The notes beneath the pieces were generated by a model that saw nothing but the letters and a program-made list of their open reading frames with translations, did not search any database and was not told where the DNA came from. Of a DNA stretch of 64,000 bases, positions 16,344-30,736 are shown piece by piece. Location: contig NZ_JAEULP010000001.1 in the NCBI RefSeq assembly GCF_016792905.1, forward strand, positions 1-64,000, in the 5' to 3' direction. The position numbers were made by a program, and so were the translations under genes. Numbering within the stretch: the first letter of the stretch is position 1; each line of letters begins with the position of its first letter. Source of the stretch: Tabrizicola sp. (GTDB lineage Bacteria; Pseudomonadota; Alphaproteobacteria; Rhodobacterales; Rhodobacteraceae).

Positions 16344-17324
16344 TTACAGCGGGTGGACCCTGGTGGCGCCGTGGGTTTTCGGCGCGAAGGTCAGGGTATT
16401 GCGGAGAGGCTGGCCGAAATCGGCGACTTCGATTTCGAAGGTGTCCCCGGCTTCGGTCCTGACCCCGTCGGCAAAGGACAGGGTGGCCGTGCCGAAGTAG
16501 TGGACATGCAGGTCGCCCGGCTGGCGGAAGATCGGGTATTTGAAGTGATGGTGCTCGAGGTTGGTGAAGCTGTGGGACATGTTCGCCTCACCCGACAGGA
16601 AGGGCTTTTCCCAAAGGGTCTTGCCGTCCCGCAGGATACGGCTGGAGCCGCGCAGATCCGCTGGCAGGTCGCCGACCAGAATTTCGGGGCCGTAGGAGGC
16701 GACACGCAGCTTGGAATGGGCGAGCCAGAGATAGTTCACCCGTTCCGTCACATGGTCGGAGAATTCGTTGCCCAGGGCCCAGCCGATCCTGTGCGGGGTG
16801 CCGTCCGGGCCGATCAGGTAGATCCCTGCGATTTCGGGTTCCTCGCCGCCATCCTGGGCGAAACCGGGGGCTTCCAGCGCAGCGCCGGGGGCGACGGCGG
16901 CGTAGCCGTTGCCCTTGTAGAACCATTCCGGTTGCGCCCCGACCTGACCGGCAGCGGGGCGACCGCCTTCGAGGCCCATGCGGAACATCTTCATACTGTC
17001 GGTCAGGCTCTCCGCACCTTCCAGTTTCGCGTGCATCGCATCGCGGGCAGAGGCCGAGCCAAGGTGAGTCAACCCGGTGCCGGTCAGGTGGAGATGCGCC
17101 GGGTCCGGGTGACTGACCGGCAGGTCGAAGGCGACGCGGTTCAGGTCGACCGTCTCGCCCAGACCGCGCGCGGCGACTTCGGCGGCAAGGGAATGGCCCG
17201 CCTTGATGGCCGCATTTGCCAGGTCGTAGACCGAGGCGGTGTTGCGCAGGGTCCTTGCTTCGGCGCCGTCGCGCACGACGACTCCGGCGCCCCTGACGGT
17301 GGACAGATGCATGGCGGAACTCAC
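16344..17324 (-). CDS. gguC: GguC/AraD1-family protein, probable 2-keto-3-deoxy-L-arabonate dehydratase
   Basis: A 326-residue FAH-fold protein of the GguC (AraD1) type, always found beside chvE-gguAB. Visible family stretches include WFYKGNGYAAVAPGAALEAPG, EPEIAGIYLIGPDGTPHRIG and GNEFSDHVTERVNYLWLAHS (metal-binding acids). In the non-phosphorylative pathway it would dehydrate the 2-keto-3-deoxy sugar acid to alpha-ketoglutarate semialdehyde. The GTG at 17324 overlaps the gguB stop by 4 bp; an ATG at 17312 is an alternative start. Substrate assignment follows from the neighbours on both sides. Confidence 0.82.
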   Translation of the reverse strand: MSSAMHLSTVRGAGVVVRDGAEARTLRNTASVYDLANAAIKAGHSLAAEVAARGLGETVDLNRVAFDLPVSHPDPAHLHLTGTGLTHLGSASARDAMHAKLEGAESLTDSMKMFRMGLEGGRPAAGQVGAQPEWFYKGNGYAAVAPGAALEAPGFAQDGGEEPEIAGIYLIGPDGTPHRIGWALGNEFSDHVTERVNYLWLAHSKLRVASYGPEILVGDLPADLRGSSRILRDGKTLWEKPFLSGEANMSHSFTNLEHHHFKYPIFRQPGDLHVHYFGTATLSFADGVRTEAGDTFEIEVADFGQPLRNTLTFAPKTHGATRVHPL

Positions 17325-18490
17325 TTGTTCTTGTTGTAGACGTCGAAGATCACGGCGGCCAAAAGGACCAACCCCTTGATCATCTGCTGGTAGTCGATGC
17401 CGATGCCGAGGATCGACATGCCCATGTTCATCACACCCATGATCAGCGCGCCGATGACGACGCCGATGATCTTGCCCGAGCCGCCCGTCATCGAAGCCCC
17501 GCCGATGAAGACGGCGGCGATGGCGTCAAGCTCGAACCCCGTGCCGGCCTTGGGCGTGGCGGAGTTGAGGCGGGCCGTGACCATCATGCCGGCAAGTGCT
17601 GCAAGGACGCCCATGTTGACGAAGCAGAAGAACACCAGCCGGTCGGTGCGGATGCCGGAAAGCTTGGCGGCTTTCTCGTTGCCGCCGACGGCATAGATGC
17701 GGCGGCCCTGGACGGTGTTTTCGGTGAAGAAGGCATAAAGGACGATCAGGATGGCCAGCACGACCAACACGTTCGGCAGGCCCCGGAACGAGGCCAGCTG
17801 GTAGCCGACGAAGGCCATGGCGGCGGCGATGATCGCGGTGCGGCCCCAGAACAGGCCGGTGGGTTCGGGGGTGATCCCGAATTCGGCATCACGGGCGCGG
17901 GCGCGGAGGCCGACCCAGACCACGGCGGCAATCACCAAAGCGGTGATGATCAGCGTCAGGCCGTGGGGTTTCATCAGTCCGGTCAGGTCGGGAATGAAGC
18001 CCGAGGACATGGACTGGAAGGCCTTGGGGAACGGCCCGATGTTCTGCCCGCCGAGAAGGAGCAGGGTGGCACCCCGGAAGACCATCATCCCGGCCAGGGT
18101 CACGATGAAGGACGGAATGCGCCAGAATGCGACCCAGTAGCCCTGCGCCGCCCCGATCAGCCCGCCGACGATCAGGGTCAACGGAATCACCAGCCAGAAG
18201 GGCAGGCCTGCGTCGACGGTCAGGTAGGCGGCGACCGCTCCGGTGAAGGCGGCGACGGAGCCCACCGACAGGTCGATGTGGCCGGAGACAATGATCAGCA
18301 GCATCCCCAGCGCCAGGATGATGACATGGCCGTTCTGCAGGAAGATGTTGGTGATGTTCGGCGCCTGCAGGAACATCGGCTTGCCCTGCGCCGAAACGAG
18401 GATCGAGAACAGCGCGACGATGGCGACCAGCGCCAGGAGCATGCCGTTTTCCCGCAGGTGGCCGCCGAGAGAGCTTTGCTTGTCAGCCAT
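17321..18490 (-). CDS. gguB: Multiple-sugar ABC transporter permease GguB/MmsB
   Basis: A 389-residue inner-membrane permease of the branched-chain/ribose type (BPD_transp_2), rich in hydrophobic helices. Examples are ILALGMLLIIVSGHIDLSVG near residue 54, FIVTLAGMMVFRGATLLLLG and the C-terminal IGVVIGALIMGVMNMGMSIL. The SGHIDLSVG loop is the characteristic cytoplasmic coupling segment. It forms the membrane channel with GguA and receives sugar from ChvE. The gene begins directly after the gguA stop and overlaps gguC by 4 bp. Confidence 0.9.
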   Translation of the reverse strand: MADKQSSLGGHLRENGMLLALVAIVALFSILVSAQGKPMFLQAPNITNIFLQNGHVIILALGMLLIIVSGHIDLSVGSVAAFTGAVAAYLTVDAGLPFWLVIPLTLIVGGLIGAAQGYWVAFWRIPSFIVTLAGMMVFRGATLLLLGGQNIGPFPKAFQSMSSGFIPDLTGLMKPHGLTLIITALVIAAVVWVGLRARARDAEFGITPEPTGLFWGRTAIIAAAMAFVGYQLASFRGLPNVLVVLAILIVLYAFFTENTVQGRRIYAVGGNEKAAKLSGIRTDRLVFFCFVNMGVLAALAGMMVTARLNSATPKAGTGFELDAIAAVFIGGASMTGGSGKIIGVVIGALIMGVMNMGMSILGIGIDYQQMIKGLVLLAAVIFDVYNKNK

Positions 18491-20026
18491 TTACGCCACC
18501 TTGCCCTTGTTGTTGTCCCTGACGATCAGCGCCATGATCTTTTCCTGGTCCGCTTCGTCGCGGCCGAGTTCCCCGACGATCCGGCCTTCGTTCATCACAT
18601 AGATGCGGTCGCACATGCCCAGAAGCTCGGGCATCTCGGAGCTGATCATCAGGACGCCCCGGCCCTGTTCGGCCAGATCCTTCATTATAGTGTAGATCTC
18701 GAACTTCGCGCCGACGTCGATGCCGCGGGTGGGTTCGTCAAGGATCAGAAGCTGGGGGTCGGTGAAGAGCCACTTCGACAGGACGACCTTCTGCTGGTTG
18801 CCCCCCGAGAGGTTCACCACCTTCTGCTGCACCCCCGGCGTGCGGATGCCAAGCTGCTTGCGGTAGCCTTCGGCGACCTGCGCCTCGCGCCGCTTGTCGA
18901 GGACCGAGCGTTTCGCGATGCCGACAAGGTTCGCGAGACTGATGTTGCGAAGGATCGGCTCTTCCAGGATCAGGCCCAGCGCCTTGCGGTCTTCGGTGAC
19001 ATAGGAGATGCCCGCCTCGATGGCCTTGCCGACCGTCGTGACGTCGACGGGCTTGCCGTTCATCCGGACCGTGCCTTCGTGGCCCTTGCCGTAGCTGTGG
19101 CCGAAGATCGACATGGCAAGCTCGGTCCGCCCGGTGCCCATCAGACCGGCGATGCCAACGATCTCGCCCTTGCGGACGTTCAGCGAGACGCCCTTGATCA
19201 TCTTGCGGCCCGCCTGTTCGGGGTGCCAGCAGGACCAGTTTTCCACCTCGAACAGCACGTCTCCGGGGTTCGGGGTGCGTTCTGGGTAGCGGTGCGCCAT
19301 ATCGCGTCCGACCATGTCGCGGATGATGCGGTCTTCCGAGATTTCGTCCTTGGACAGGGTCGAGACGGAGGTGCCGTCGCGGATCACGGTGATGCGGTCG
19401 GCGACGCGGGAGATTTCGTTCAGCTTGTGGCTGATGATGATCTGGGTGACACCCTGCGCCTTCAGTTCCAGCATCAGATCAAGCAGGCGGTCGGCGTCGG
19501 CTTCCTGCAAGGCGGCGGTCGGTTCGTCGAGAATCAGAAGGCGGACGTTCTTCGACAGGGCCTTGGCGATCTCGATCAGCTGCTGCTTGCCGACGCCCAG
19601 CTTGCCGACCACGGCGCCGGGGGGTTCGTTCAGGCCGACCTGACGGAGCAGGGCCTCGGTCTTCTTGAAGGCCATCGGCCAGGAGATGACGCCGTTCGTC
19701 GCCACCTCGTTGCCCATGAACAGGTTCTCGGCGATCGACAACAGCGGGATCAGCGCGAGTTCCTGGTGGATGATGATGATGCCCTTGTGCTCGCTGTCAC
19801 GGATGTCGCGGTTGGCGAGGGGTTCGCCGTCATAGGTGATGTCGCCGTCATAGCTGCCATGGGGATAGACCCCCGATAGCACCTTCATCAGCGTGGATTT
19901 CCCGGCGCCGTTCTCGCCGCAGATGGCGTGGATTTCGCCGACTTCGACCGTGAGACTGACCCGGTCCAATGCCTTGACGCCCGGGAAGACCTTGGTGATC
20001 TCCCGCATTTCCAGAAGTGTGGTCAT
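18491..20026 (-). CDS. gguA: Multiple-sugar ABC transporter ATP-binding protein GguA/MmsA
   Basis: A 511-residue tandem ATPase of the ribose/xylose class. The first half has Walker [15 protein letters not shown], a [14 protein letters not shown] signature and Walker [12 protein letters not shown]. The second half has the usual degenerate P-loop region ([19 protein letters not shown]), an intact signature [15 protein letters not shown] and Walker [15 protein letters not shown]. It powers uptake of monosaccharides such as arabinose, galactose or xylose. It lies 63 bp downstream of chvE, beyond a strong hairpin, and is followed immediately by gguB. Confidence 0.92.
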
Positions 20027-20045
20027 GTCCCCTCCCCCAAGGGGA

Positions 20046-20074
20046 CCTGCCCGCGCGGGAGCCGCGCGGGCAGG
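20046..20074 (-). promoter_or_regulatory. Strong intercistronic hairpin between chvE and gguA
   Basis: A perfect 13-bp GC stem (20046-20058 with 20062-20074) with a 3-base loop lies in the 63-bp gap after the binding-protein gene. No T-run follows on the minus strand, so it is not a canonical intrinsic terminator. Such hairpins commonly stabilise the upstream mRNA or reduce read-through, giving more binding protein than transporter. Confidence 0.65.
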
Positions 20075-20089
20075 CCCTTCGGATGAAGC

Positions 20090-21160
20090 TTACTTCAGCT
20101 GGTCGGCGGTGTAGTAGCCCGAACCGACGAGGATCGCTTCGTAGTTCGTGGCGTTCACCGGCACCGGCTCCAAGAGGTAGGACGGTACCACCTTCACGCC
20201 GTTGTCGTAGGTCGAGGTGTCGTTGATTTCCGGCTCGCCGCCCGAAAGCACGGCGTCGACCATCTTGACGGTGACTTTCGCCAGCTCGCGGGTGTCCTTG
20301 AAGATCGAGGAATACTGCTCGCCAGCGATCATCGACTTGACCGAGGGGACCTCGCAGTCCTGGCCGGTGACGATCGGCATCTTCAGGTCGCCCGAGCCGT
20401 AGCCCACGCCCTTGACCGACGACAGGATGCCGATCGACAGCCCGTCATAGGGCGACAGCGCGCCGTGCAACTGCTTGTCGCCGTAGTTCGAGGACAGGAG
20501 GTTGTCCATCCGGGCCTGCGCCACCGCGCCGTCCCAGCGCAGGGTGCCGACCACATCCATGCCCATCTGGCCAGACGGAATGGCAATTTCGCCGGAGTCG
20601 ATCATCGGTTGCAGGACCGACATCGCGCCGTTGTAGAAGAAGAAGGCGTTGTTGTCGTCGGGCGAGCCGCCGAACAGTTCGACGTTCCAGGGCTTCACGT
20701 CGGGGAAGCGTTCCTTGAGGCCCTCGACCAGCGAGGTGGCCTGCTGCACGCCGACCTTGAAGTTGTCGAAGGTGGCGTAATAGTCGACCGAACCGGAATC
20801 GCGGATCAGGCGGTCGTAGGCGATGACCTTGATGCCCGCAGCGGCGGCGTTGTCCAGCGCGTTCGACAGCGTGGTGCCGTCGATGGCCGCGATCACCAGC
20901 GCCTTGACTCCGCTCGTGATCATATTCTCGATCTGGCTCAGCTGGGTCGGGATGTCATCTTCGGCATACTGAAGGTCGGCGGTGTAACCTGCATCGGTGA
21001 AGGCCTTCACCATCGACTCGCCGTCCGAAATCCAGCGCGACGAGGATTTGGTCGGCATCGCGATACCGACGGCGCCCTTGTCCTGGGCAAAGACGGGCAA
21101 AGCCGACAGGGCGGCGGTGGTGCCGGCAAGGGCCATCAGGCCACGGCGGGTCAAGATCAT
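20090..21160 (-). CDS. chvE: Periplasmic multiple-sugar-binding protein ChvE
   Basis: A 356-residue solute-binding protein of the ChvE/XylF class. The N-terminus [20 protein letters not shown] ending PVFAQ is a signal peptide with a twin-arginine-like TRRGLMAL motif, so Tat export is possible. The mature region contains [20 protein letters not shown] and [20 protein letters not shown], as in ChvE. In Agrobacterium ChvE binds arabinose, galactose and other sugars. ATG at 21160 is favoured by GGGAGGAAACAG immediately upstream; the longer frame to 21265 has no such site. It heads the eight-gene leftward operon and is divergent from gbpR. Confidence 0.9.
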
Positions 21161-21272
21161 CTGTTTCCTCCCGATGATTCTTCGTTTGCATCCGCTTTGG
21201 GCACGCCTTTGCGCCCCCTGCACACGGACGAGGCGCAGATTGCGCAGAAGACCCATATCTGTCAAATAGGGC

Positions 21273-21300: not shown

Positions 21301-22233
21301 ATGAATATCGTCGCCTCGTCCCTCGCTGGCCAGTTGCGCCGTCTCAAGCCGGTGCATCTACGCCTGCTTGCCGAGCTTGACCACACCGGCGCCCTTGGCC
21401 TTGCCGCCATTCGGATCGGCATTGCCCAGCCCGCGGCTTCGCGGCTGCTGGCCGAGATGGAGGAATTGCTCGGCCTGTCGCTGCACGAACGGCAGGGCCG
21501 CGGGCTTCGGTTGACCCATGTCGGGCAGGCGCTGGCGCGGCGGGCCGCCCGGATCGAGATCGAGCTGACCGATGCCGCCCGTGATCTGGCCGAGGCCGCC
21601 ACTGGGCGCGCAGGCGTCGTGCGGGTCGGGTCGGTGACCGGTCCGGCACTAAGCCTGGTGCTGCCGGTGCTGATTGCGATCCAGCGCGCCCTGCCCGACT
21701 TTCGCGCCGAGGTCACGGTGGCGACGTCTGTCAACCTTTGCGATCTCTTGCGCGATGGGCGGCTGGACTTTGCCCTTGCCCGCCTCAGCCCCGGCGAAAC
21801 CCAGCTTGAGGCGCAGGTCATTGCCGGCGAACCCCTGTCGCTGGTCGTACGCCGGGGGCATCCCGTGCTGGTGCGGCCGGAGATTTCGATAGATGACCTG
21901 CTCCGTCACGACTGGGTCATGGGTGATGACGAAACCCTGCTGACGCAGACGGTCATCGCCCGGCTTTCCGAACTTGGGCTGCCCCTGCCCCAGCGGCGAA
22001 TCTCGACCTCGTCCTTCCTGTTCACGCTTGCGCTCTTGAACCAGACCGATGCCATAGCGCCGTTGGCGACGTCGGTTGTCGACAGTTTCGCGGGAAACCC
22101 TTCGGTTCCGTTCGTGTCTCTGCCGGTGGACTTCGGCCTGTCCGTCGCACCTTTCAGCCTGGTGACCCGGACAGGCGCACAGATGACCCCGTCAGCGCAG
22201 CGGCTGATCGACGGAATTCTCGCCGCCGTCTAA
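21301..22233 (+). CDS. gbpR: LysR-family regulator GbpR
   Basis: A 310-residue LysR-type regulator. The N-terminal helix-turn-helix includes HLRLLAELDHTGALGLAAIR and IAQPAASRLLAEMEELLG near residues 17-58; the periplasmic-binding-like effector domain follows (VRVGSVTGPALSLVLPVLIA; FLFTLALLNQTDAIAPL). Divergent placement next to chvE is the hallmark of GbpR, the galactose-binding-protein regulator of Agrobacterium and Azospirillum, which activates chvE in response to arabinose or galactose. The rightward gene ends at a hairpin shared with the convergent PanB-like gene. Confidence 0.88.
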   Translation: MNIVASSLAGQLRRLKPVHLRLLAELDHTGALGLAAIRIGIAQPAASRLLAEMEELLGLSLHERQGRGLRLTHVGQALARRAARIEIELTDAARDLAEAATGRAGVVRVGSVTGPALSLVLPVLIAIQRALPDFRAEVTVATSVNLCDLLRDGRLDFALARLSPGETQLEAQVIAGEPLSLVVRRGHPVLVRPEISIDDLLRHDWVMGDDETLLTQTVIARLSELGLPLPQRRISTSSFLFTLALLNQTDAIAPLATSVVDSFAGNPSVPFVSLPVDFGLSVAPFSLVTRTGAQMTPSAQRLIDGILAAV

Positions 22234-22283: not shown

Positions 22284-23081
22284 TCAGGCGTTCTGATCCA
22301 GCCAGTCGGCGAAGGCCGAGACGACTTCGGGCTCGCAGTCCACCAGATGCTGTGGCGCCGGGTAGTCGCCCTCGTGCACGTCCCTGGCGAAGCGGCCCAA
22401 CGCCTCGATCCGCATCGCCTGGAGACGGTCGTACTCGCTGGCGAAATCGGCATAGACCTTGGCATGGCGCGGAATCTTGCCCCGGTTCTGGCCCAGCACA
22501 TCATCGGTGAAGAGATACTGTGCATGGCCCGCGACACCGGCGCCCATCGAGATCAGGAACAGGTTGGTGCGCTCGGCGATCAGCCGGGTGATGGAGTGCG
22601 GCACGACCTCGATTTCCACCGCGAAGGCGCCTGCGTCTTCCAATGCCTTGCACTGGTTCCAGACCAGTTGCGCGGTTTCCAGTGTCTTGCCCACCGCCTT
22701 GAACCCCCCGGTCCAGGTGCGTTTCGAGGGGATCAGGCCGACATGGCCGCAGACCGGGAGCGCATGGTCGGCCATTGCCCGAACCGTCGCGAGCGAGCCC
22801 GAGCAATAGAAGGCATCCGCGCCCTGCTTGTAGAGCGGGAAGGCCCAGCGCAGGAAATCGTCGGTCCCGCCGATTTCGTAGAAGTTGTCGCCGGGGAAAA
22901 TGAAAGCGTCCGGGGCAACCTCGCGGAAGCGACGGTCCATGACCATGGACGGCGGAACCGAGAGCAGTTCCACCCCGGCTTTCGCCGCTGCTTCGGCTTC
23001 GTCCAGAGTCTCGACCCGCAGCATGGCGAATTGGTGTTTGCCGCGCTGGTCCAGCAGGTCGCGGACGGTTGGCGGTGCCAT
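22284..23081 (-). CDS. PanB-fold (ketopantoate hydroxymethyltransferase-like) protein with altered active site
   Basis: A 265-residue protein recognisably related to PanB by PVCGHVGLIPSKRTWTGGFK near residues 109-128, VEIEVVP near residue 155 and an overall PanB length. The canonical metal-binding VGDS is replaced by SVPP (residues 41-44), and the usual active-site lysine segment VKIEGG by FYCSGS near residue 91, while His113 and Glu158 equivalents remain. It is therefore unlikely to make ketopantoate. It is the last gene of the leftward operon desaturase-Rieske-panB-like, its start overlapping the Rieske stop. A C1-linked or carbon-carbon lyase step in catabolism of the imported compound is an inference. 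Ordinary PanB with an unusual site is the alternative. Confidence 0.7.
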   Translation of the reverse strand: MAPPTVRDLLDQRGKHQFAMLRVETLDEAEAAAKAGVELLSVPPSMVMDRRFREVAPDAFIFPGDNFYEIGGTDDFLRWAFPLYKQGADAFYCSGSLATVRAMADHALPVCGHVGLIPSKRTWTGGFKAVGKTLETAQLVWNQCKALEDAGAFAVEIEVVPHSITRLIAERTNLFLISMGAGVAGHAQYLFTDDVLGQNRGKIPRHAKVYADFASEYDRLQAMRIEALGRFARDVHEGDYPAPQHLVDCEPEVVSAFADWLDQNA

Positions 23082-23392
23082 CACGCGACCTCGACGAAGA
23101 CGCGGTCGCCTTCGACCTTCACCGGGAAAGTCCGAAGGTTGATGCAGACCGGAGCGCGCATCGCCTCGCCCGTGCGATAGTCGAACTGGCCGTTGTGCTT
23201 GGGGCATTCGATCAGGTTGCCCATCACGAGGCCGTCACAGAGGTGGACGTTCTCATGCGTGCAAAGCCCGGCGGTGGCGAAGAAATCTCCCTCGGGAGAG
23301 TGGTAGATCGCGAAGGTCTTCCCGGCGTGATCCCAGCGGATCAAGTCTTCCTCGTCGATGTCGTCGGTGGCGCAGGCGTCGATCCAGGGCAT
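23081..23392 (-). CDS. mocE: MocE-family Rieske-type [2Fe-2S] ferredoxin
   Basis: A 103-residue stand-alone Rieske ferredoxin with both cluster motifs, CTHENVHL near residue 44 and CPKHNGQFD near residue 63 (CxH ... CxxH). It transfers single electrons to a partner oxygenase. The gene lies 10 bp after the desaturase-fold oxygenase gene and overlaps the PanB-like start by one base, so the partner is almost certainly the upstream gene product. MocE is the ferredoxin of the rhizopine catabolism genes of rhizobia. No ferredoxin reductase gene is present in the window. Confidence 0.85.
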   Translation of the reverse strand: MPWIDACATDDIDEEDLIRWDHAGKTFAIYHSPEGDFFATAGLCTHENVHLCDGLVMGNLIECPKHNGQFDYRTGEAMRAPVCINLRTFPVKVEGDRVFVEVA

Positions 23393-23402
23393 GTCTTGTC
23401 CT

Positions 23403-24494
23403 TCATTCTGCGGCGGCGGGGCGCATCATGCCCGGCACATACTGGTGGAAATCCTCGCGGTAGGGCTTGGCGGTGGGCGGCAGGTCGCGCTTGAGGAAAT
23501 ACTCCTCGCTGAGGACCTGGCGCTTGATCGCCGGCCACATCTCGCGGAAGGCCTCGGCAATGGAGCGGTTCGGCGGGGGCAGGTCGTCCTTGATGGTCGC
23601 GTGCAGGCGCGGCAGGGCGTGGTAGGGCACCATCGGGAACATGTGGTGTTCGACATGGTAGTTCATGTTCCAGTAGATGAAGCGGCTGACCGGGTTCATG
23701 TAGACGGTGCGGCTGTTCAGGCGGTGGTCGATGACATTGTCGGCCAGCCCGCCGTGCTGGAGAAGGCCAGTCATGATGTGGTGCCAGGCGCCATACATGC
23801 GGGGCAGGCCGATGATCATCAGCGGCAGGATCGAATGCCAGGCCATCGCCGACAGGATCGTCGCGGCATAGATCGCGACATAGATGATGGCGACCTTCTG
23901 CACCTTCGGCCATTCGCTTTCCGGCACGAAGGTCTTTTCCTCGGGCGTCGGGCCAGAGATGGCGTTGCGGAGGATCAGCGGGACGAACTTGATGACGTCG
24001 ATGATGCCGAAGAAATTCAGGATCAGCTTGGCCAGTTCTGGCGGCCGCATCACGGCAATCTCGGGGTCGCGGCCGACGAGGTAGGTTTCGGAGTGGTGGC
24101 GCGCATGGCTCCAGCGCCAGGTCGCGGAATTGCGCATGATCATGAAGCTGGCGATCTGGTAGACCCAGTTGTTCATCCAGGGCGTCTTGAAGGCGGTTCC
24201 ATGGCTGCATTCATGCCAGCGCGAATCGGAGGCGGATCCGTAGAGCACGCCGTAGGCCAGCCAGAAGGGGGCCGACCACCAGGACGGCCAAAGCGCGATG
24301 CCGATCGCGACAAGGACGATCATGCTGCCGTAAAGGATGATCGTGTCGCGGATGGCGGGCTGGTCGCTGCGCGCCATCAGGTCCTTCATCACCTTGCGCG
24401 GCACTTCGGTATGATACCACTCCGCCGCCGTCAGCCCGCTTTCGACCGCGCGCTTGGCGTCGGGCCCGAAGGGGCTGTAATCCCGCTTGCTCAT
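23403..24494 (-). CDS. Fatty-acid-desaturase-fold membrane di-iron oxygenase, MocD-like
   Basis: A 363-residue membrane protein with the three histidine boxes of the desaturase/hydroxylase superfamily: HECSHGTAF near residue 94, HARHHSETY near residue 130, and YHVEHHMFP near residue 286. Hydrophobic spans IILYGSMIVLVAIGIALW and VAIIYVAIYAATILSAMAW flank them. Paired with a MocE ferredoxin and next to inositol-type genes, it resembles MocD, the hydrocarbon-oxygenase-like protein needed for catabolism of 3-O-methyl-scyllo-inosamine. An oxidative demethylation or hydroxylation of an inositol derivative is the favoured role; lipid desaturation is the alternative. It is divergent from the LacI regulator. 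Confidence 0.78.
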   Translation of the reverse strand: MSKRDYSPFGPDAKRAVESGLTAAEWYHTEVPRKVMKDLMARSDQPAIRDTIILYGSMIVLVAIGIALWPSWWSAPFWLAYGVLYGSASDSRWHECSHGTAFKTPWMNNWVYQIASFMIMRNSATWRWSHARHHSETYLVGRDPEIAVMRPPELAKLILNFFGIIDVIKFVPLILRNAISGPTPEEKTFVPESEWPKVQKVAIIYVAIYAATILSAMAWHSILPLMIIGLPRMYGAWHHIMTGLLQHGGLADNVIDHRLNSRTVYMNPVSRFIYWNMNYHVEHHMFPMVPYHALPRLHATIKDDLPPPNRSIAEAFREMWPAIKRQVLSEEYFLKRDLPPTAKPYREDFHQYVPGMMRPAAAE

Positions 24495-24597
24495 CTGTGA
24501 CCTCCATTCCCCCGCCCCCGGTGTCGGGAGCGCCTCATCGAGTCGTGGATAAGTCGGGCGTGACCAAATCTCCAATAGTCCTGCTTGCAGGTTTCGT

Positions 24598-24611
24598 CAT
24601 GATCCATCATG
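24598..24611. promoter_or_regulatory. CATGAT-CC-ATCATG palindrome, candidate LacI-family operator
   Basis: A 14-bp inverted repeat with perfect 6-bp arms lies in the 153-bp divergent gap, 37 bp before the LacI gene start and 104 bp before the desaturase start. It could control both directions. Binding is inferred from symmetry and position. Confidence 0.45.
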
Positions 24612-24647
24612 GTCTGGCAAAGGCCTGATGGGATTTCGTCAAGCACG

Positions 24648-25679
24648 ATGGCAAACCGCCCCACCATCCATGATGTGGCCCGCGAGGCCGGGGTATCCAG
24701 CGCGACGGTCGACCGTGTCCTGAACGGGCGCGAGAAGGTGCGCGAGGAAACCGCCCGCAAGGTCTATGAGGCCGCCCGGCTGATCGGCTATCACGCGGCG
24801 CCGCTGATCGGGCAGCGGGTGCAGGCGGATCTGCCAAGGCTGCGGCTGGGGCTGGTGCTGCACAAGGAGCGCCAGGCCTTCTACCAGCAGTTCAAGGCCG
24901 AGGCGGAGCGCGCGGTCGGCCAGGCCACCGGGGTGCGTGCGACGGTGCAGGTGGCCTTCGCTTCGTCGCAATCGCCCAAGGATTTCACAGAGCTGATGGA
25001 GGGGATGGCGGGCCGTGTCGACGCGATTGCCGCGACCGCCGTTACCCATCCCGAAGTGACAGAGGCGGTGATCCGGCTGAATGCCAAGGGTATCCCATGC
25101 TTTTCGCTGCTGAACGATTTCGGGCAGGGGGTTCGGCAAAACTACCTTGGACTCAACAACTTGAAGGTCGGGCGCATCGCTGCGCACATGATCGCCACCG
25201 CCTCGCACCATGCCGGAAAGATCGCGGTTTTCGTCGGAGGCTACCGCTGGCACGGGCACGAGCTGCGCGAGACCGGGGTGCGCAGCTATTTCCGCGAACA
25301 TGCCCCGCAGTTCCAGATCCTCGACACGCTGATCAACCTGGAAACCCGGCAGCTGACCTATGAGGCGACGCTCGACCTGCTGGGCCGCCACCCGGACCTG
25401 CGCGGCATCTATTGTGCCGGGGGCGGGATGGAGGGCGCCATCGCTGCGGTGCGCGAGGCGCGGGCACCGGGCGAGGTGGCGCTGGTCGTCAATGAGCTTA
25501 CCCCCGAAAGCCGCGCTGCGCTGATCGGGCGCCATGTGACGATGGTCATCGGCACGCCATTGCCCCGGCTGTGCGATGACCTCGTGCGGCTTGCCGCCGA
25601 GACGGTCAGCGATGGCATGACCCCGGTGCAAGGCCAGCACTTCCTGCAGCCCGACCTTTACCTTCCCGAAAGCGTCTGA
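24648..25679 (+). CDS. LacI-family transcriptional regulator of the moc/inositol-like genes
   Basis: A 343-residue LacI-type regulator. The N-terminal helix-turn-helix reads TIHDVAREAGVSSATVDRVL and the hinge follows near residue 55. The periplasmic-binding-like sensor domain includes LRLGLVLHKERQAFYQQF and QNYLGLNNLKVGRIAAHMIA. It sits between the leftward oxygenase operon and the rightward catabolic/transport operon and probably represses both until an inositol-type ligand binds. ATG at 24648 places the helix-turn-helix directly at the N-terminus; the ATG at 24609 adds a non-conserved extension. The ligand is unknown; rhizobial moc genes use MocR (a GntR-type regulator) instead, so the regulation differs. 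Confidence 0.85.
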   Translation: MANRPTIHDVAREAGVSSATVDRVLNGREKVREETARKVYEAARLIGYHAAPLIGQRVQADLPRLRLGLVLHKERQAFYQQFKAEAERAVGQATGVRATVQVAFASSQSPKDFTELMEGMAGRVDAIAATAVTHPEVTEAVIRLNAKGIPCFSLLNDFGQGVRQNYLGLNNLKVGRIAAHMIATASHHAGKIAVFVGGYRWHGHELRETGVRSYFREHAPQFQILDTLINLETRQLTYEATLDLLGRHPDLRGIYCAGGGMEGAIAAVREARAPGEVALVVNELTPESRAALIGRHVTMVIGTPLPRLCDDLVRLAAETVSDGMTPVQGQHFLQPDLYLPESV

Positions 25680-25700
25680 CGAAAAAGCGTCAGCGTCATG

Positions 25701-25726
25701 CGCGTCATTTCGTCACAAATGATGCG
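25701..25726. promoter_or_regulatory. 26-bp near-perfect palindrome upstream of the MocC-like gene
   Basis: Two 10-bp arms with one mismatch (core TCATTT and AAATGA, spacer CGTCAC) span 25701-25726, after the LacI stop and 84 bp before the MocC-like ATG. The size and spacing suit a dimeric LacI-type operator for the rightward operon. It could alternatively form a terminator hairpin, but no T-run follows. Confidence 0.5.
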
Positions 25727-25809
25727 TTCGCCCCGCGACGGATTGACGCGACCTTGCTGTCTCGGGGATGGTCCGGCCAACGAAATTGCCGCGGTTGGGG
25801 AGGCCGGGA

Positions 25810-26628
25810 ATGATCCACTTCGCTTTGAACCACATGACGGTGGCCCGGCTTTCCTTCCGCGAGCTTGTGGCCTTGTCGAAGGGCCTTGGCTGCGTCGGCA
25901 TCGAGGTCCGCAACGACCTGCCCCAGCCGCTGTTCGACGGTATGGACCCGGCCGAAGCAGGAGCCTTCATCCGCGACAGCGGGCTGCGCCTGCTGGCCGT
26001 GGCCGAGGTGAAGCGCTTCAACGACTGGTCCACGGACAAGGAAGCCGAAGCGCTGGCGCTGATGAAGATCGCCAAGGCCGCCGGGGCCGAAGCGGTCAGC
26101 CTGATCCCGCGCAACGACAATCTTGGGATGGGCAACGGCGAGCGGCAGGCAAACCTGCGCGTCGCGCTGAAGGCGCTGAAGACGATGCTGGAAGATCACG
26201 GCCTTGTCGGCATGGTCGAGCCCCTGGGGTTCGAGATCTGCGCGCTGCGCTACAAGGCGGAGGCGGTCGAGGGGATCGAGGCCGTCGGCGGCAAGGGCCG
26301 CTTCAAGCTGGTGCATGACACGTTCCATCACACGCTGGCCCACGGCGGCCCGCTGTTCCCGGACCATACCGGCATCGTCCATGTCTCTGGCGTCGTCGAC
26401 CAGCAGGTGAGCGTCGCCGACATGCGCGATCCGCATCGGGTGCTTGTCACCCCGGCCGACCGGCTGGGCAATGTGGAACAGATCGCCGCCTTGCAAGCCG
26501 CGGGCTGGAACGGTCCCGTCAGCTATGAGGCCTTCTCGCCGGAGGTTCACGCCTATGCCGATCCGGCGGGCGAACTGTCCAAGTCTTTTGATTTCATCCG
26601 CCAAAGCCTCGCTGCGCGCGCGGCCTGA
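25810..26628 (+). CDS. Sugar phosphate isomerase/epimerase-family TIM-barrel protein, MocC-like
   Basis: A 272-residue AP-endonuclease-2-type TIM barrel. The N-terminal MIHFALNHMTVARLSF and GCVGIEVRNDLP, and metal-ligand segments MVEPLGFE, KLVHDTFHH, HVSGVVDQQ and SYEAFSPEVH, match the IolE/IolI/MocC group. In rhizobia, MocC is required for breakdown of scyllo-inosamine; IolE/IolI enzymes act on inosose and ketogluconate intermediates. It is the first gene of the rightward operon and precedes an inositol-type binding protein by 79 bp. The ATG at 25810 follows a GGGAGGCCGGG stretch. Confidence 0.78.
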   Translation: MIHFALNHMTVARLSFRELVALSKGLGCVGIEVRNDLPQPLFDGMDPAEAGAFIRDSGLRLLAVAEVKRFNDWSTDKEAEALALMKIAKAAGAEAVSLIPRNDNLGMGNGERQANLRVALKALKTMLEDHGLVGMVEPLGFEICALRYKAEAVEGIEAVGGKGRFKLVHDTFHHTLAHGGPLFPDHTGIVHVSGVVDQQVSVADMRDPHRVLVTPADRLGNVEQIAALQAAGWNGPVSYEAFSPEVHAYADPAGELSKSFDFIRQSLAARAA

Positions 26629-26707
26629 GCGACGGCTTCAGACCCAGGGAGAACGGGTCTTCCGGTTCAATCCAGGATGTGCCGGACATCCACCAAGGGA
26701 GAGAGAC

Positions 26708-27649
26708 ATGAAAAAGACGCTTCTTGCTGCGGGCCTGACCGCGCTGATGGGCACGACCGCCATGGCGGACGGCATCGGCGTGTCGATGGCGCTGTTCGAC
26801 GACAACTTCCTGACCGTGCTGCGCAACGGCATCCAGTCGCAGGCCGATTCGGCCGGCCTGAAGGTGCAGATCGAGGATGCGCAGAACGACGTCGCCAAGC
26901 AGCTGGACCAGATCAACAACTTCATCGCCTCGGGCGTTGACGCGATCATCGTGAACCCGGTCGATACCTCGGCGACGCAGGCGATGTCGGATGCCGCCGC
27001 TGCCGCGAACATCCCGCTGGTCTATGTGAACCGCCAGCCGATCAACGTCGACACCCTGCCCGACAACCAAGCCTTCGTCGCCTCGAACGAAGTGGAATCC
27101 GGCACGCTGGAAACCATCCAGCTCTGCGACAACTGGGCGGCCGAAGGGAAGACTGAGGTCAACGTCTATGTCATGCAGGGCGAACTGTCGAACCAGGCCG
27201 CCGTGCAGCGGACCCAGGACATCCATGATGTGATGGGCGACGGCCGCTGCAAGGTGAAGATCAACATCATCGACGAGCAGACCGCCAACTGGTCGCGTGA
27301 TCAGGCCCAGACCCTGATGACCAACTGGCTGTCGACCGGTGCGGCGTTCGATGGCGTGATCGCCAACAACGACGAAATGGCGATCGGCGCGATCCAGGCG
27401 ATGAAGGCCGCGGGCATCGACATGGCGACGGTGCAGGTCGGCGGCGTCGACGCGACGCAGGACGCCCTGGCCGCGATGCAGGCGGGTGAACTGGACGTGA
27501 CCGTGTTCCAGAACGCGGCGGCCCAGGGTGGCGGCGCGCTGGATGCGGCGACCAAGCTCGCCAAGGGCGAGGCGGTTGACCAGAAGGTCTATGTTCCGTT
27601 CGAACTGGTCACTCCGGCGAACGTCGCCGACTACGCTTCGAAGAACTGA
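26708..27649 (+). CDS. Periplasmic sugar/inositol-type binding protein (MocB-like)
   Basis: A 313-residue solute-binding protein with a clear Sec signal peptide (MKKTLLAAGLTALMGTTAMA, cleavage after AMA) and a ribose/inositol-binding fold: GVSMALFDDNFLTVLRNGIQ near residue 24, ASGVDAIIVNPVDTSATQAM near residue 76 and GVIANNDEMAIGAIQAMKAA near residue 217. In rhizobial moc clusters the equivalent is the rhizopine-binding protein MocB. The start has an excellent ribosome-binding site (GGGAGAGAGAC). A hairpin follows the stop, separating it from the permease gene. Confidence 0.82.
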   Translation: MKKTLLAAGLTALMGTTAMADGIGVSMALFDDNFLTVLRNGIQSQADSAGLKVQIEDAQNDVAKQLDQINNFIASGVDAIIVNPVDTSATQAMSDAAAAANIPLVYVNRQPINVDTLPDNQAFVASNEVESGTLETIQLCDNWAAEGKTEVNVYVMQGELSNQAAVQRTQDIHDVMGDGRCKVKINIIDEQTANWSRDQAQTLMTNWLSTGAAFDGVIANNDEMAIGAIQAMKAAGIDMATVQVGGVDATQDALAAMQAGELDVTVFQNAAAQGGGALDAATKLAKGEAVDQKVYVPFELVTPANVADYASKN

Positions 27650-27666
27650 GCCCCTTCCGGGCACCT

Positions 27667-27696
27667 GGGGCGGCTGGAGACAGTCGCCCCTTTCTT
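27667..27696 (+). terminator. GAGA-loop hairpin plus TTTCTT after the binding-protein gene
   Basis: GGGGCGGCTG pairs with CAGTCGCCCC around a GAGA tetraloop (one G-T pair) and is followed by TTTCTT. It lies 17 bp after the binding-protein stop and 69 bp before the permease start. It is probably a partial terminator that lowers permease and ATPase expression relative to the binding protein. Confidence 0.7.
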
Positions 27697-27764
27697 GCTG
27701 GTCCAGATGGGGCAACATCGGCCAGAGTTTTCCGAAATCGCATCTTTGGGGAGGAGGAAGCGAC

Positions 27765-28877
27765 GTGGCTGAAGCGACCCATGGCCTTGGCGGCCTGAAA
27801 TACGACCCGGCAAAGCGCACCCGCGCGCCGGAGTGGAACGTGTTCGGCGCGCTGGTGCTGATCGTCCTGATCTTCGAGATCCTGAACCGGATGCAGGGCG
27901 GATCCTTCCTGTTCAACATGCGCGACAACGTGGATGCGATCTTCAACCAGCAGCGGCTGGATATCATGATTCTCCAGGTTGCCATCGTCGGGATCATCGC
28001 GCTGGGCGTGACGCAGGTGATCATCATCGGCGGGATCGACCTGTCGTCGGGGTCGGTCGTCGGCGTGACGGCGATGGTGGTGATGAGCTTCGCTCAGACG
28101 GCCCTGGTCAACGGCAACCCGAACCCGAAGGCGATCTTCGGCGACTGGGCGATGGACCTGCCGGTCATCGTGCCGATTGTCGTGGGACTGGCCTGCGGGC
28201 TGCTCGCCGGGCTGATCAACGGCTTGCTGGTCGCCTACACCAAGATTCCGCCCTTTATCGCAACGCTGGGCATGATGGTTTCGGCCCGGGGCGCGGCGCG
28301 ATGGTGGTCGAACGGCCAACCGGTGAGCTTTCCGACGGAAAACTTCGGCAGCCTGGCAAATGGCGACCTTCTGGGCAGCATGACCTTTGGCGTGCTCCAC
28401 TGGCCCGGACAGAACCCGGCGGTGGTCTTTGTCCTGCTGGCGATCCTGTTCCATGTCATCATGACGTACACGCTGTACGGCAAGCGCAGCTATGCCATCG
28501 GGTCGAACGAGGCGGCGGCGCGGATGTCGGGGATCAACGTCGATCACCACAAGGTGCTGGTCTATACCATCGCGGGTATCCTCGCGGCAGTCGCGGCAGT
28601 GCTTTTGACCTCGAAGAACCTGACCGCACAAGCGGGAATGGGGGTCATGTACGAACTTGACGCCATCGCCATGGCGGTGATCGGCGGCATCAGCCTTGCG
28701 GGCGGGCGCGGCTCGATCCTTGGAACGGTGCTGGGCGCGATGATCTTTTCGGTCATCATCTCGGGGTTCACCTCGATCAAGCTGGACGCCTATTACCAGG
28801 AGATGGTCAAGGGCGCGATCATTGTCGGCGCCGTGGTGCTGGACCAATGGCGGCAACGCAAACGGACCCGGGGGTAA
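27765..28877 (+). CDS. Inositol/ribose-type ABC transporter permease
   Basis: A 370-residue BPD_transp_2 permease. Hydrophobic helices include VFGALVLIVLIFEIL, MILQVAIVGIIALGVTQVII and GAMIFSVIISGFTSI, with the conserved loop GGIDLSSGSVVG near residue 92. The GTG at 27765 was chosen because the strong site GAGGAGGAAG lies 4 bases upstream; a longer in-frame extension to 27528 would overlap the binding-protein gene. It forms the channel for the substrate bound by the upstream protein and works with the following ATPase. Confidence 0.88.
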   Translation: MAEATHGLGGLKYDPAKRTRAPEWNVFGALVLIVLIFEILNRMQGGSFLFNMRDNVDAIFNQQRLDIMILQVAIVGIIALGVTQVIIIGGIDLSSGSVVGVTAMVVMSFAQTALVNGNPNPKAIFGDWAMDLPVIVPIVVGLACGLLAGLINGLLVAYTKIPPFIATLGMMVSARGAARWWSNGQPVSFPTENFGSLANGDLLGSMTFGVLHWPGQNPAVVFVLLAILFHVIMTYTLYGKRSYAIGSNEAAARMSGINVDHHKVLVYTIAGILAAVAAVLLTSKNLTAQAGMGVMYELDAIAMAVIGGISLAGGRGSILGTVLGAMIFSVIISGFTSIKLDAYYQEMVKGAIIVGAVVLDQWRQRKRTRG

Positions 28878-28882
28878 CGGAC

Positions 28883-29650
28883 ATGTCGAAGATCATTCTG
28901 GAAACCCGTGGCCTGACCAAGCACTATGGCGGCGTACATGCGCTGGAAGACGCGAACTTCATCCTGCACGAAGGCGAGCATGTCGCCGTGGTGGGCGATA
29001 ACGGGGCGGGGAAGTCCACGTTCGTGCGCCAGGTCACGGCGGTAGAGCAGCGGTCCTCCGGTGAGGTTATCTTTGACGGCCAGCCGGTGAATTTCTCCGG
29101 CCCACTGGAGGCGCGACAGGCCGGGATCGAGACGGTCTTTCAGACCTTGGCGCTGGCTGACGATCTGGACGTGCCCTCGAACCTGTTCCTGGGGCGCGAG
29201 CTGTTCAAGTTCAAGCTTGGGCCATTCTCCTGGCTGGACCGCAAGACGATGCGCGACCGGACGATGGAGGCGCTGAAGACCACGGCGGTGAAAATCCCCA
29301 ATGTCGACAACCCGATCCGCAACATGTCGGGCGGGCAGCGGCAGTGCGTGTCCATCGCCCGGACGGCAGCCTTTGCGTCGAAGCTGGTGATCATGGACGA
29401 ACCGACGGCGGCGCTGGGGGTGCAGGAGACGGCGCAGGTCGAGAACATCATCCGGGGGCTGAAGGAGCGCGGCATCCCGATGATCCTGATCAGCCACAAC
29501 CTGCGGCAGGTTTTCGACCTGGTGGACCGGATCGTCGTGTTCCGTCGCGGGCGCATCGTGGCGTCACTGCGGAAGGATGAAACCGACGGCAATGACATCG
29601 TGAGCTACATCACCGGGGTGAAGGGTGCCTCGGATGCGGCGTTCGCCTGA
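28883..29650 (+). CDS. Single-domain sugar ABC transporter ATP-binding protein
   Basis: A 255-residue ATPase with Walker A GDNGAGKSTF near residue 38, signature MSGGQRQCVSIART near residue 138 and Walker B KLVIMDEPTAAL. It has one nucleotide-binding domain, unlike the tandem ~500-residue ATPases usual for ribose-type systems (for example GguA in this window), and resembles the short FrcA class; two copies would assemble with the permease. ATG at 28883 is preferred over 28847, which would lie inside the permease frame. The gap to the permease is 5 bp. Confidence 0.85.
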   Translation: MSKIILETRGLTKHYGGVHALEDANFILHEGEHVAVVGDNGAGKSTFVRQVTAVEQRSSGEVIFDGQPVNFSGPLEARQAGIETVFQTLALADDLDVPSNLFLGRELFKFKLGPFSWLDRKTMRDRTMEALKTTAVKIPNVDNPIRNMSGGQRQCVSIARTAAFASKLVIMDEPTAALGVQETAQVENIIRGLKERGIPMILISHNLRQVFDLVDRIVVFRRGRIVASLRKDETDGNDIVSYITGVKGASDAAFA

Positions 29651-29687
29651 GCGCCTTGCAATGATCGTTGCAGGAAGATAGAAGTTC

Positions 29688-29707
29688 GGCAACCTTGTTG
29701 CCAACAA
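29688..29707. promoter_or_regulatory. Overlapping palindromes upstream of iolG
   Basis: GGCAAC-CTT-GTTGCC (29688-29702) overlaps a second dyad TTGTT-GCC-AACAA (29695-29707). As RNA, the two hairpins exclude one another; as DNA, they could be a regulator site. A separate dyad TGCAA...TTGCA sits at 29657-29672. All lie in the 84-bp gap between the ATPase and iolG. Confidence 0.45.
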
Positions 29708-29734
29708 GAAACAGGCTTTGAAAGAGGACAGGCT

Positions 29735-30736
29735 ATGACGATCAGGTTCGGGCTTCTGGGCGCGGGGCGCATCGGGAAGGTTCATGCGAAGGCGGTGACG
29801 GGGAACCCGGCCGCGAAGCTGGTGGCGGTGTCGGACGCGATGGCCCCGGCGGCGCAGGCGATTGCGGATCAGTATGGCTGCGATGTGCGCAGCATCGACG
29901 CGATTGCTTCGGCGAAGGACATCGACGCGGTGGTGATCTGCACGCCGACGGATACCCATGCTGACCTGATCGAGCAGTTCGTGAAGGCCGGGAAGGCGGT
30001 GTTCTGCGAAAAGCCCATCGACCTGTCGCTGGCCCGCGTCAAACAGTGCCTGGAGGTCGTCCACGCCGAGAAGGGGGTGCTGATGGTCGGCTTCAACCGC
30101 CGCTTCGACCCGCATTTCGCTGCCGTCCGGGGCGAGATCGACAAGGGCAGCATCGGGACGGTAGAGATGGTGACGATCACCAGCCGCGACCCGGGGGCGC
30201 CGCCCTTGGACTACATCGCGCGGTCGGGCGGGATCTTCCGGGACATGACGATCCATGACTTCGACATGGCGCGGTTCCTGCTGGGCGAGGAAGTCACCGA
30301 GGTTTCGGCGATGGCGGCGGTGCTGGTCGATCCGGCGATCGGGAAGGCGGGGGACAGCGACTCGGTTCAGGTCATGCTGAAGACGGGCTCGGGCAAGATG
30401 GCGGTGATCTCGAACTCGCGCCGGGCGACCTATGGCTACGACCAGCGGATCGAGGTGCACGGGTCGAAGGGGGTCGCCTCGGCCGAGAACCAGCGGCCGG
30501 TTTCCATCGAGGTGGCGACCGGGGCGGGCTATACCCGGCCGCCGCTGCATGACTTCTTCATGACCCGCTATACCGAGGCCTATGCGGCCGAGATCGCGGC
30601 CTTCATCGACGTGATCGGCGGCAAGGCCAAGGCGAGCCCGTCGGGCGAGGACGGGCTCTTGGCCCTGGCCCTGGCCGAGGCTGCGCTGAAGTCGGTCGCC
30701 GAGGGGCGGACTGTGAAGATGAGTGAGGTTCTCTGA
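29735..30736 (+). CDS. iolG: Inositol 2-dehydrogenase / Gfo-Idh-MocA family
   Basis: A 333-residue NAD(P)-dependent dehydrogenase. It has the Rossmann motif FGLLGAGRIGKVHAKAV, the catalytic lysine motif CEKPIDLSLARVKQC near residue 89, and the inositol-dehydrogenase segments FNRRFDPHFAAVRGEI and RDMTIHDFDMARFLLGEE (catalytic His in TIHDFD near residue 174). It oxidises myo- or scyllo-inositol-type cyclitols to inososes. Its length fits IolG. MocA of rhizopine clusters is in the same family, so the product may act on an inosamine derivative. It is last in the rightward operon and followed by a terminator. Confidence 0.85.
   Translation: MTIRFGLLGAGRIGKVHAKAVTGNPAAKLVAVSDAMAPAAQAIADQYGCDVRSIDAIASAKDIDAVVICTPTDTHADLIEQFVKAGKAVFCEKPIDLSLARVKQCLEVVHAEKGVLMVGFNRRFDPHFAAVRGEIDKGSIGTVEMVTITSRDPGAPPLDYIARSGGIFRDMTIHDFDMARFLLGEEVTEVSAMAAVLVDPAIGKAGDSDSVQVMLKTGSGKMAVISNSRRATYGYDQRIEVHGSKGVASAENQRPVSIEVATGAGYTRPPLHDFFMTRYTEAYAAEIAAFIDVIGGKAKASPSGEDGLLALALAEAALKSVAEGRTVKMSEVL

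What the first reader, a model, noticed from the sequence alone, without database searches (positions are those of the whole stretch)
22284..30736. A rhizopine/inositol-like (moc/iol) divergon in a Rhodobacteraceae chromosome
A LacI regulator sits between a leftward operon (MocD-like di-iron oxygenase, MocE Rieske ferredoxin, PanB-fold protein) and a rightward operon (MocC-like TIM barrel, MocB-like binding protein, ABC permease and ATPase, inositol 2-dehydrogenase). Counterparts of MocA, B, C, D and E are all here, but MocF (ferredoxin reductase) and MocR are not, and a PanB-fold gene is added. Established: in rhizobia mocDE are needed for 3-O-methyl-scyllo-inosamine use and mocABC for scyllo-inosamine. 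Inference: this cluster imports and oxidises an O-methylated or aminated inositol.
Basis: partly seen in the sequence, partly recalled or inferred. Interest (0 to 1): 0.75.

Follow-up and report, generated by a model that had tools for sequence, protein, structure and literature searches.

The report
Sister system of rhizopine degradation genes
A bacterium carries a gene cluster, related to the one root-nodule bacteria use to eat rhizopines, that probably imports a methylated inositol, strips off its methyl group and feeds the ring into normal inositol breakdown, with an overlooked enzyme that probably handles the released one-carbon unit.

Summary
In detail: a LacI-centred divergon at 22284-30736 with MocD, MocE and a PanB-fold protein leftward, and TIM barrel, binding protein, permease, ATPase and inositol 2-dehydrogenase (IolG) rightward. 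It recurs in many Rhodobacterales and some rhizobia.

The reading needs correction. The PanB-like gene is not an addition: all 14 MocR-type rhizopine loci found on plasmids (3 sequence groups) carry mocD-mocE-mocF-PanB-like-purU, 6 of 14 also folD. In 41 genomes 32 of 36 MocE genes have a PanB-like gene within 4 kb; 0 of 36 PanB-proper-type matches do. PanB-likes have lost PanB's metal-binding acids but keep its His and Glu. They also accompany a second membrane oxygenase type (PF04116). 19 of 32 IolG genes lie beside MocE.

Against rhizopine itself: no MocR; IolG in MocA's place; the TIM barrel does not resemble the moc loci's IolE-like gene. S. meliloti RCAM1115 holds both a MocR-type and a LacI-type system.

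Best explanation: uptake and oxidative O-demethylation of a non-aminated O-methyl-inositol, PanB-like handling the C1 unit. Substrate and PanB-like chemistry are inferred. No PurU was found in the window's genome (93% complete).

The parts
22284..23081 (-). PanB-like protein (265 aa), proposed C1 (formaldehyde or hydroxymethyl) handling enzyme; ATG overlaps the mocE stop by one base
   Evidence: metal-binding acids lost, His and Glu kept; AF2 model pLDDT 92.4, best PDB match PanB 1m3u E 9e-17
23081..23392 (-). MocE-type Rieske [2Fe-2S] ferredoxin (CTH...CPKH)
   Evidence: TIGR02377 166 bits, cut-off 136; motif read
23403..24494 (-). MocD-type membrane di-iron oxygenase; His boxes H94/H98, H130/H133/H134, H280/H283/H284 invariant in 24 aligned homologues
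   Evidence: PF00487; 70% to MocD of the MocR-type locus L107; alignment A2
24495..24608 (.). divergent promoter region between mocD and lacI; no conserved operator recognised by a simple palindrome scan
24609..25679 (+). LacI-family regulator (PF00356 + PF13407); start possibly 24648
   Evidence: divergent LacI in 72 of 76 homologous loci
25768..26628 (+). xylose-isomerase-like TIM barrel, probable inosose isomerase or similar
   Evidence: PF01261; nearest PDB 2q02 and 4hgx; no NCBIfam match at E 0.001
26708..27649 (+). periplasmic sugar/cyclitol-binding protein
   Evidence: PF13407; 61% identical to MocB of L107; best PDB 4yo7
27765..28877 (+). ABC permease (CUT2 type)
   Evidence: PF02653
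28847..29650 (+). single-domain ABC ATPase; start possibly 28883
   Evidence: PF00005
29735..30736 (+). inositol 2-dehydrogenase IolG; one of two IolG in this genome over the curated cut-off
   Evidence: TIGR04380 424 bits, cut-off 355

Best explanation
A LacI-controlled uptake and oxidative O-demethylation system for a non-aminated O-methyl-inositol (ononitol-, pinitol- or sequoyitol-like), a sister of the rhizopine mocDEF system. The ABC transporter with a MocB-like binding protein imports the cyclitol. MocD, a membrane di-iron oxygenase fed electrons by MocE, hydroxylates the O-CH3 group, giving an unstable hemiacetal that yields inositol plus a formaldehyde-level C1 unit. The PanB-like protein takes up that C1 unit, most likely onto tetrahydrofolate (as free formaldehyde or straight from the hemiacetal). 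IolG oxidises the inositol, the TIM barrel probably isomerises the inosose, and the iolC-iolD-iolE-iolB cluster elsewhere in the genome finishes the job. Shown: gene identities, linkage, loss of PanB's metal-binding acids, presence of the core iol genes. Inferred: the substrate, demethylation as the reaction, and the PanB-like chemistry.
For: MocD 70% and SBP 61% identical to those of L107, whose MocR passes the rhizopine_MocR model, 765 against 650 bits. All 14 MocR-type loci (3 sequence groups) have mocD-mocE-mocF-PanB-like-purU, 6 of 14 also folD; MocR of one locus from each group passes the model. FolD and PurU turn CH2-THF into formate, and the TRIS pathway paper proposes FolD and PurU in the same role behind a formaldehyde-accepting SHMT (PMC10848231, passages). 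32 of 36 MocE have PanB-like within 4 kb, all same strand; 32 of 35 PanB-like have MocE; 0 of 36 PanB-proper-type matches. PanB-like also serves 7 fetched cassettes whose only oxygenase seen is of PF04116 type, so it fits a shared C1 product better than a shared oxygenase. 19 of 32 IolG within 12 kb of MocE; both over-cut-off IolG of this genome lie in MocE/PanB-like cassettes. Core iolC, D, E, B at C32 pass their models. No MocR here; S. meliloti RCAM1115 holds both types.
Against: No ligand or product is known. The window's genome (92.9% complete) shows no PurU over the cut-off (79.5 against 286 bits) and has a glutathione-dependent formaldehyde dehydrogenase (602 against 544 bits), so THF is not needed to dispose of formaldehyde there; PurU is in view in only 5 of the 80 named loci and FolD in 2. 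13 of 75 loci lack PanB-like within 2.7 kb, and one MocD-MocE pair of this genome (C27:88859) has none. 13 of 32 IolG are not near MocE. No ferredoxin reductase is in the cluster; the nearest in the genome is 45% identical at C80. A folate site in the PanB-like protein was not shown.
Confidence: 0.57

Rival explanations
1. MocDE hydroxylates a position other than an O-methyl group (ring carbon, C-methyl, N-methyl), and the PanB-like protein performs an aldol or retro-aldol step on the carbon skeleton.
For: PanB is an aldol-type enzyme; the nearest other folds are PEP mutase/isocitrate lyase-type C-C lyases. PurU was not found in this genome, so the protein is kept without a full THF oxidation route.
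Against: PanB-like goes with two different oxygenase types and with PurU, partly FolD, in MocR-type loci; IolG near MocE points to an intact inositol ring.
Confidence: 0.18
2. It catabolises a rhizopine (scyllo-inosamine or 3-O-methyl-scyllo-inosamine), as the aminated reading proposes.
For: SBP 61% identical to MocB of L107; MocD 70%.
Against: No MocR among the cluster's proteins; dehydrogenase is IolG and only 30% to MocA; TIM barrel unlike the IolE-like gene of the moc locus L106; LacI-type and MocR-type coexist in one strain.
Confidence: 0.07
3. Ordinary inositol or sugar uptake cluster in which MocDE is a lipid desaturase or hydroxylase pair unconnected with the sugar.
For: MocD scores in the general FA_desaturase family (PF00487) and passes no specific NCBIfam equivalog.
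Against: Divergon with transporter and IolG recurs over Rhodobacterales and rhizobia; the relatives sit in the rhizopine operon, whose mocD promoter is rhizopine-inducible (PMC10107442, passages).
Confidence: 0.1

Closest known systems
Rhizopine catabolism locus moc (mocDEF, mocR, mocBA, mocC) of S. meliloti L5-30 / R. leguminosarum
   Same: MocD 70%, MocB-like SBP 61%, PanB-like 56% identical to the MocR-type locus L107; MocE of the same family
   Different: LacI instead of MocR; IolG instead of MocA; unrelated TIM barrel instead of the IolE-like gene; no MocF, purU or folD in the cluster; its own permease and ATPase inside the rightward operon
Myo-inositol (iol) catabolism
   Same: IolG passes TIGR04380; core iolC-iolD-iolE-iolB cluster at C32 passes its models
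   Different: Adds an oxygenase-ferredoxin pair and a PanB-like enzyme before the standard entry step
Ketopantoate hydroxymethyltransferase PanB
   Same: Fold (1m3u, E 9e-17, TM 0.68-0.69); His and Glu equivalents invariant in 94 of 94 rows
   Different: Metal-binding acids and active-site Lys replaced, 6 constant columns of a PanB loop absent in all 94 rows; below both PanB cut-offs; a separate panB over the cut-off, next to what I read as panC, exists at C37
THF-linked formaldehyde recycling in TRIS degradation (SHMT + FolD + PurU; PMC10848231, passages read)
   Same: Catabolic operon carrying FolD and PurU, as in the MocR-type relatives
   Different: There a PLP-type SHMT accepts the C1; here a PanB-fold protein is proposed; neither FolD nor PurU in the window's cluster

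Membership tests
Rhizopine catabolism (moc) | MocR-type (GntR-aminotransferase) regulator, NF052281 | tested here: not met
   Not among the matches listed for the 10 proteins scanned; the regulator is LacI. L107, L143 and L146 pass (765, 757, 740 against 650)
Rhizopine catabolism (moc) | MocD and MocE | tested here: met
   MocD 70% over 350 aa; MocE TIGR02377 166 against 136 bits
Rhizopine catabolism (moc) | MocF ferredoxin reductase in the operon | tested here: not met
   No reductase hit in window 12-36 kb; nearest in the genome 45% at C80
Rhizopine catabolism (moc) | MocB binding protein | tested here: met
   61% over 314 columns to L107 MocB. NCBIfam NF052284 is no test: it misses the MocB of L107 and L106 too (43.6 and 39.8 against 420)
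Rhizopine catabolism (moc) | MocA dehydrogenase and MocC | tested here: not met
   30% to MocA; no significant similarity to the IolE-like gene taken as MocC (that identification is mine)
Rhizopine catabolism (moc) | growth on or induction by scyllo-inosamine / 3-O-methyl-scyllo-inosamine | not testable with these tools
   needs a culture
Inositol 2-dehydrogenase (IolG) | TIGR04380 curated cut-off | tested here: met
   424 against 355 bits
Ketopantoate hydroxymethyltransferase (PanB) | NCBIfam cut-offs and metal-binding acids | tested here: not met
   104 against 272 and 86 against 208 bits; D84-equivalent Gly in 92 of 94 rows, E114-equivalent Ser or Ala in 90 of 94, D45-equivalent aligned as Asp in only 9 of 94 (residue roles and E. 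coli numbers recalled)
MocD-type di-iron membrane oxygenase | three His boxes | tested here: met
   all eight His invariant in 24 sequences

The most novel reading that the evidence does not exclude
The PanB-like family is a metal-free, folate-dependent formaldehyde- or hemiacetal-capturing enzyme: a dedicated C1 transferase that partners MocE-fed membrane di-iron O-demethylases of two different types (MocD and PF04116), and that has been an unnoticed part of the rhizopine operon, where purU and, in some, folD complete the route from O-methyl to formate.
Probability: 0.35. Interest if true: 0.78.

Novelty: new variant of a known kind. Interest (0 to 1): 0.6.

Why it matters
If right, it extends the rhizopine system from a rarity of nodule bacteria to a widespread way of eating methylated inositols, which legumes commonly make (pinitol and ononitol; PMC8730688, passages), and adds two or three genes (PanB-like, purU, folD) to an operon that the text I saw describes as mocDEF only (PMC10107442, passages; its supplementary figure of the locus was not seen). 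Formaldehyde made by an oxygenase must go somewhere; a dedicated PanB-fold acceptor would be a new answer. It can be tested directly with one purified protein, THF and formaldehyde. It also warns that genes annotated 3-methyl-2-oxobutanoate hydroxymethyltransferase beside MocE are probably not that.

Tried and rejected
Rejected: 'PanB added to a moc cluster' (one search shows it in all 14 MocR-type loci). PanB as the pantothenate enzyme (a PanB over the cut-off is at C37). A conserved LacI operator: a simple palindrome scan of 74 intergenic regions found no 14-mer shared by more than 2. NF052284 as a test of the binding protein: it fails on the MocB of L106 and L107 too. The three PanB-likes without MocE (31-34% identity) lie, by my reading of the frames, after rpoA and ribosomal genes (L130, L131) or in another sugar cluster (L132): a different subfamily, uninformative. 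The oxygenase beside MocE was not seen in L116, nor in L110 and L134, which are cut by contig ends.

Paper searches: 83 papers, 30 listed; 0; 26, 15 listed; 2; neither holds panB; 10; 19, 15 listed; none of the 15 holds 'rhizopine'; 2; 5; 1. None that was listed tied PanB or PurU to moc. Bahar 1998 and 2000 were not read (seen only as references and through other papers' passages); supplements could not be searched.

Caveats: 25 of the 41 genomes are one genus including the window's own, so rows are not independent; the 14 moc loci fall into 3 sequence groups, and single loci show broken matches (MocR in two pieces in L149, MocD in L143, PanB-like in L138, L140, L149, folD in L106, L147, L148). 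In one search the split between PanB-like and PanB-proper-type matches is a line at 95 bits that I set; the lower class was not checked gene by gene. The 94 PanB-like rows are 91 distinct sequences; L102, L103 and L104 repeat L111, the window and L110, and L130 and L131 belong to the distant subfamily. PF04116 was tested by Pfam in 3 proteins; the others are called by tblastn similarity.
Full report
What is there. Leftward: mocD-like (23403-24494), mocE (23081-23392) and a PanB-like gene (22284-23081) whose ATG overlaps the mocE stop by one base. Rightward: lacI, TIM barrel, binding protein, permease, ATPase, iolG. Pfam and NCBIfam place them: MocE and IolG pass curated cut-offs (166 against 136, 424 against 355 bits); the PanB-like protein has the Pfam fold (116 bits) but fails both NCBIfam PanB cut-offs (104 against 272, 86 against 208).

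Conservation. In them MocE follows MocD in 79 of 80, PanB-like lies within 2.7 kb downstream in 62 of 75 with enough flank, a divergent LacI in 72 of 76, TIM+SBP+permease+ATPase upstream in 47 of 64, IolG in view in 38 of 80, a MocF-like FAD reductase in 10 of 75, PurU in 5 of 80, FolD in 2 of 80. Of plasmid records read, Marivivens has all the parts (with iolC) and Peteryoungia all the parts plus a MocF-like reductase and purU; R. etli Mim1 and S. meliloti 1021 and RCAM1115 have LacI, mocD, mocE, reductase and PanB-like, without transporter or IolG in view.

Comparison with the true rhizopine locus. Phyllobacterium zundukense Tri-48 (L107) carries a MocR that passes the rhizopine_MocR model (765 against 650 bits). 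Searching plasmids with this MocR gave 14 records at 86% identity or more, then a gap down to 47%. All 14 were fetched (L106, L107, L138-L149): each has mocD-mocE-FAD reductase-PanB-like-purU in line; folD follows in 6 of 14, in two pieces in three of these; PanB-like matches in two pieces in 3 (L138, L140, L149). They form 3 sequence groups; MocR of one locus from each group passes the model (L107, L143, L146). [quoted passage not shown] So the PanB-like gene in the window is not an addition; it belongs to this kind of operon. A Mesorhizobium huakuii plasmid has mocD-E-F-PanB-like-purU-folD beside a LacI-type regulator. A MocD tree of 99 rows puts L106 and L107 inside a rhizobial group of 15 rows (100/97) that is otherwise LacI-type or without a regulator in view, and the window near Tabrizicola rows (its bootstrap had not settled).

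Is the window system a rhizopine system? Against: LacI not MocR; IolG only 30% to MocA; TIM barrel without significant similarity to the IolE-like gene of L106; no reductase. For kinship: MocD 70%, PanB-like 56%, binding protein 61% to MocB. S. meliloti RCAM1115 carries a MocR-type locus on p_1 and a LacI-type locus on p_2, so the LacI type is a sister with, presumably, another substrate.

Inositol link. In the window's genome and 40 relatives (25 of the 41 one genus), 32 IolG genes pass the model at E 1e-105; 19 of 32 lie within 12 kb of a MocE gene, against 0.33 expected by uniform placement for the 24 in MocE-bearing genomes; in 12 of the 16 genomes with both, every IolG is beside MocE. In the same calls only 1 of 29 IolE is within 12 kb of MocE, and 6 of 32 IolG lie within 12 kb of an IolE. 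This genome's two IolG genes over the cut-off are the window's and one at C27, both in MocE/PanB-like cassettes, while iolC (fused to an aldolase), iolD, iolE and iolB lie at C32 and pass their models. These cassettes thus look like the entry to inositol breakdown here.

The PanB-like protein. In those 41 genomes 32 of 36 MocE genes have a PanB-like gene within 4 kb, all on the same strand; 32 of 35 PanB-likes have MocE; 0 of 36 PanB-proper-type matches do. Of the four MocE without, two lie near contig ends (L127, L128), two lack it in the stretch fetched (L126, L129). Aligned with four PanBs (three annotated panB, one over the model's cut-off), 94 PanB-like rows (91 distinct) have lost the residues that I recall as E. 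coli D45, D84, K112 and E114 (D45 position: Pro 57, Ala 16, Asp 9, Ser 7, Gly 5; D84: Gly 92, Ala 2; K112: Tyr 92, Leu 2; E114: Ser 55, Ala 35, Gly 2, Pro 2), lack six otherwise constant PanB columns of one loop in all 94, and keep H136 and E181 in 94 of 94 (roles recalled; a review places Mg2+ in the PanB active site, PMC7770189, section 9 read). Nine rows thus still align an Asp at the D45 position. HMMER alignments to solved PanBs agree for the K112-E114, H136 and E181 positions. The AlphaFold model (pLDDT 92.4) matches PanB best (1m3u, E 9e-17, TM 0.68-0.69, though rmsd is 15.6, so some part is placed differently), then isocitrate lyase-type barrels (E 4e-8).

Second oxygenase. In the 20 regions plus L110 and L111, MocE occurs in 19 of 22; of these 19, a MocD is in 8 (L115 has both kinds), a PF04116-type oxygenase alone in 8 (7 of them with PanB-like in view, the eighth cut by a contig end), neither seen in 3 (L110, L116, L134). 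A partner shared by two oxygenase types, and followed by purU and sometimes folD in the moc loci, is best explained by the product they share: the C1 unit of a demethylation. FolD and PurU are proposed to recycle folate behind a formaldehyde-accepting enzyme in TRIS degradation (PMC10848231, passages).

Limits. This genome (92.9% complete) shows no PurU over the cut-off but a glutathione-dependent formaldehyde dehydrogenase, so C1 would be assimilated or leave by another road. A MocF-like reductase exists at C80 (45%), not in the cluster. No ligand is known; the nearest solved binding proteins are 4yo7 and galactose-binding proteins (I recall 4yo7 as an inositol complex). Substrate choice among O-methyl-inositols is open.

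Verdict. A new variant of a known kind: a LacI-type sister of moc, with an overlooked and testable PanB-like partner.

Noticed in passing
window 17321-21265 (-) and 21301-22233 (+): A ChvE-type multiple-sugar binding protein (NF040907, 532 against 460 bits), a GguB permease (534 against 450), a double-domain ATPase and a LysR-like regulator (best model PcaQ, 129 against 304) directly beside the moc-like divergon.
   Followed up: partly
window 13536-14456 (-): A second Gfo/Idh/MocA-family dehydrogenase (55.7 bits) in what looks like a sugar-acid cluster.
   Followed up: no
L111 (G000:C50), L110 (end of G000:C27): Two further MocE/PanB-like cassettes in the same genome; the C50 one has a PF04116 oxygenase, the C27 one the second IolG.
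   Followed up: partly
L129 (G000:C27:82000-97000): A MocD-MocE pair without PanB-like in view, next to a DUF4432 protein (328 bits).
   Followed up: no
L107 6283-7212 and L106 6291-7220; NCBIfam NF052284: The NCBIfam model named rhizopine catabolism substrate-binding protein scores only 43.6 and 39.8 against 420 on the MocB of MocR-type loci, so the name may be misleading.
   Followed up: partly
L130, L131, L132: A more distant PanB-like subfamily (31-34% identity), by my reading after rpoA and ribosomal genes in two genomes and in an unrelated sugar cluster in a third.
   Followed up: partly
L081: Frigidibacter MocD-MocE locus without PanB-like or divergent LacI in view, with a protein resembling MocR-type regulators in the locus.
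   Followed up: no
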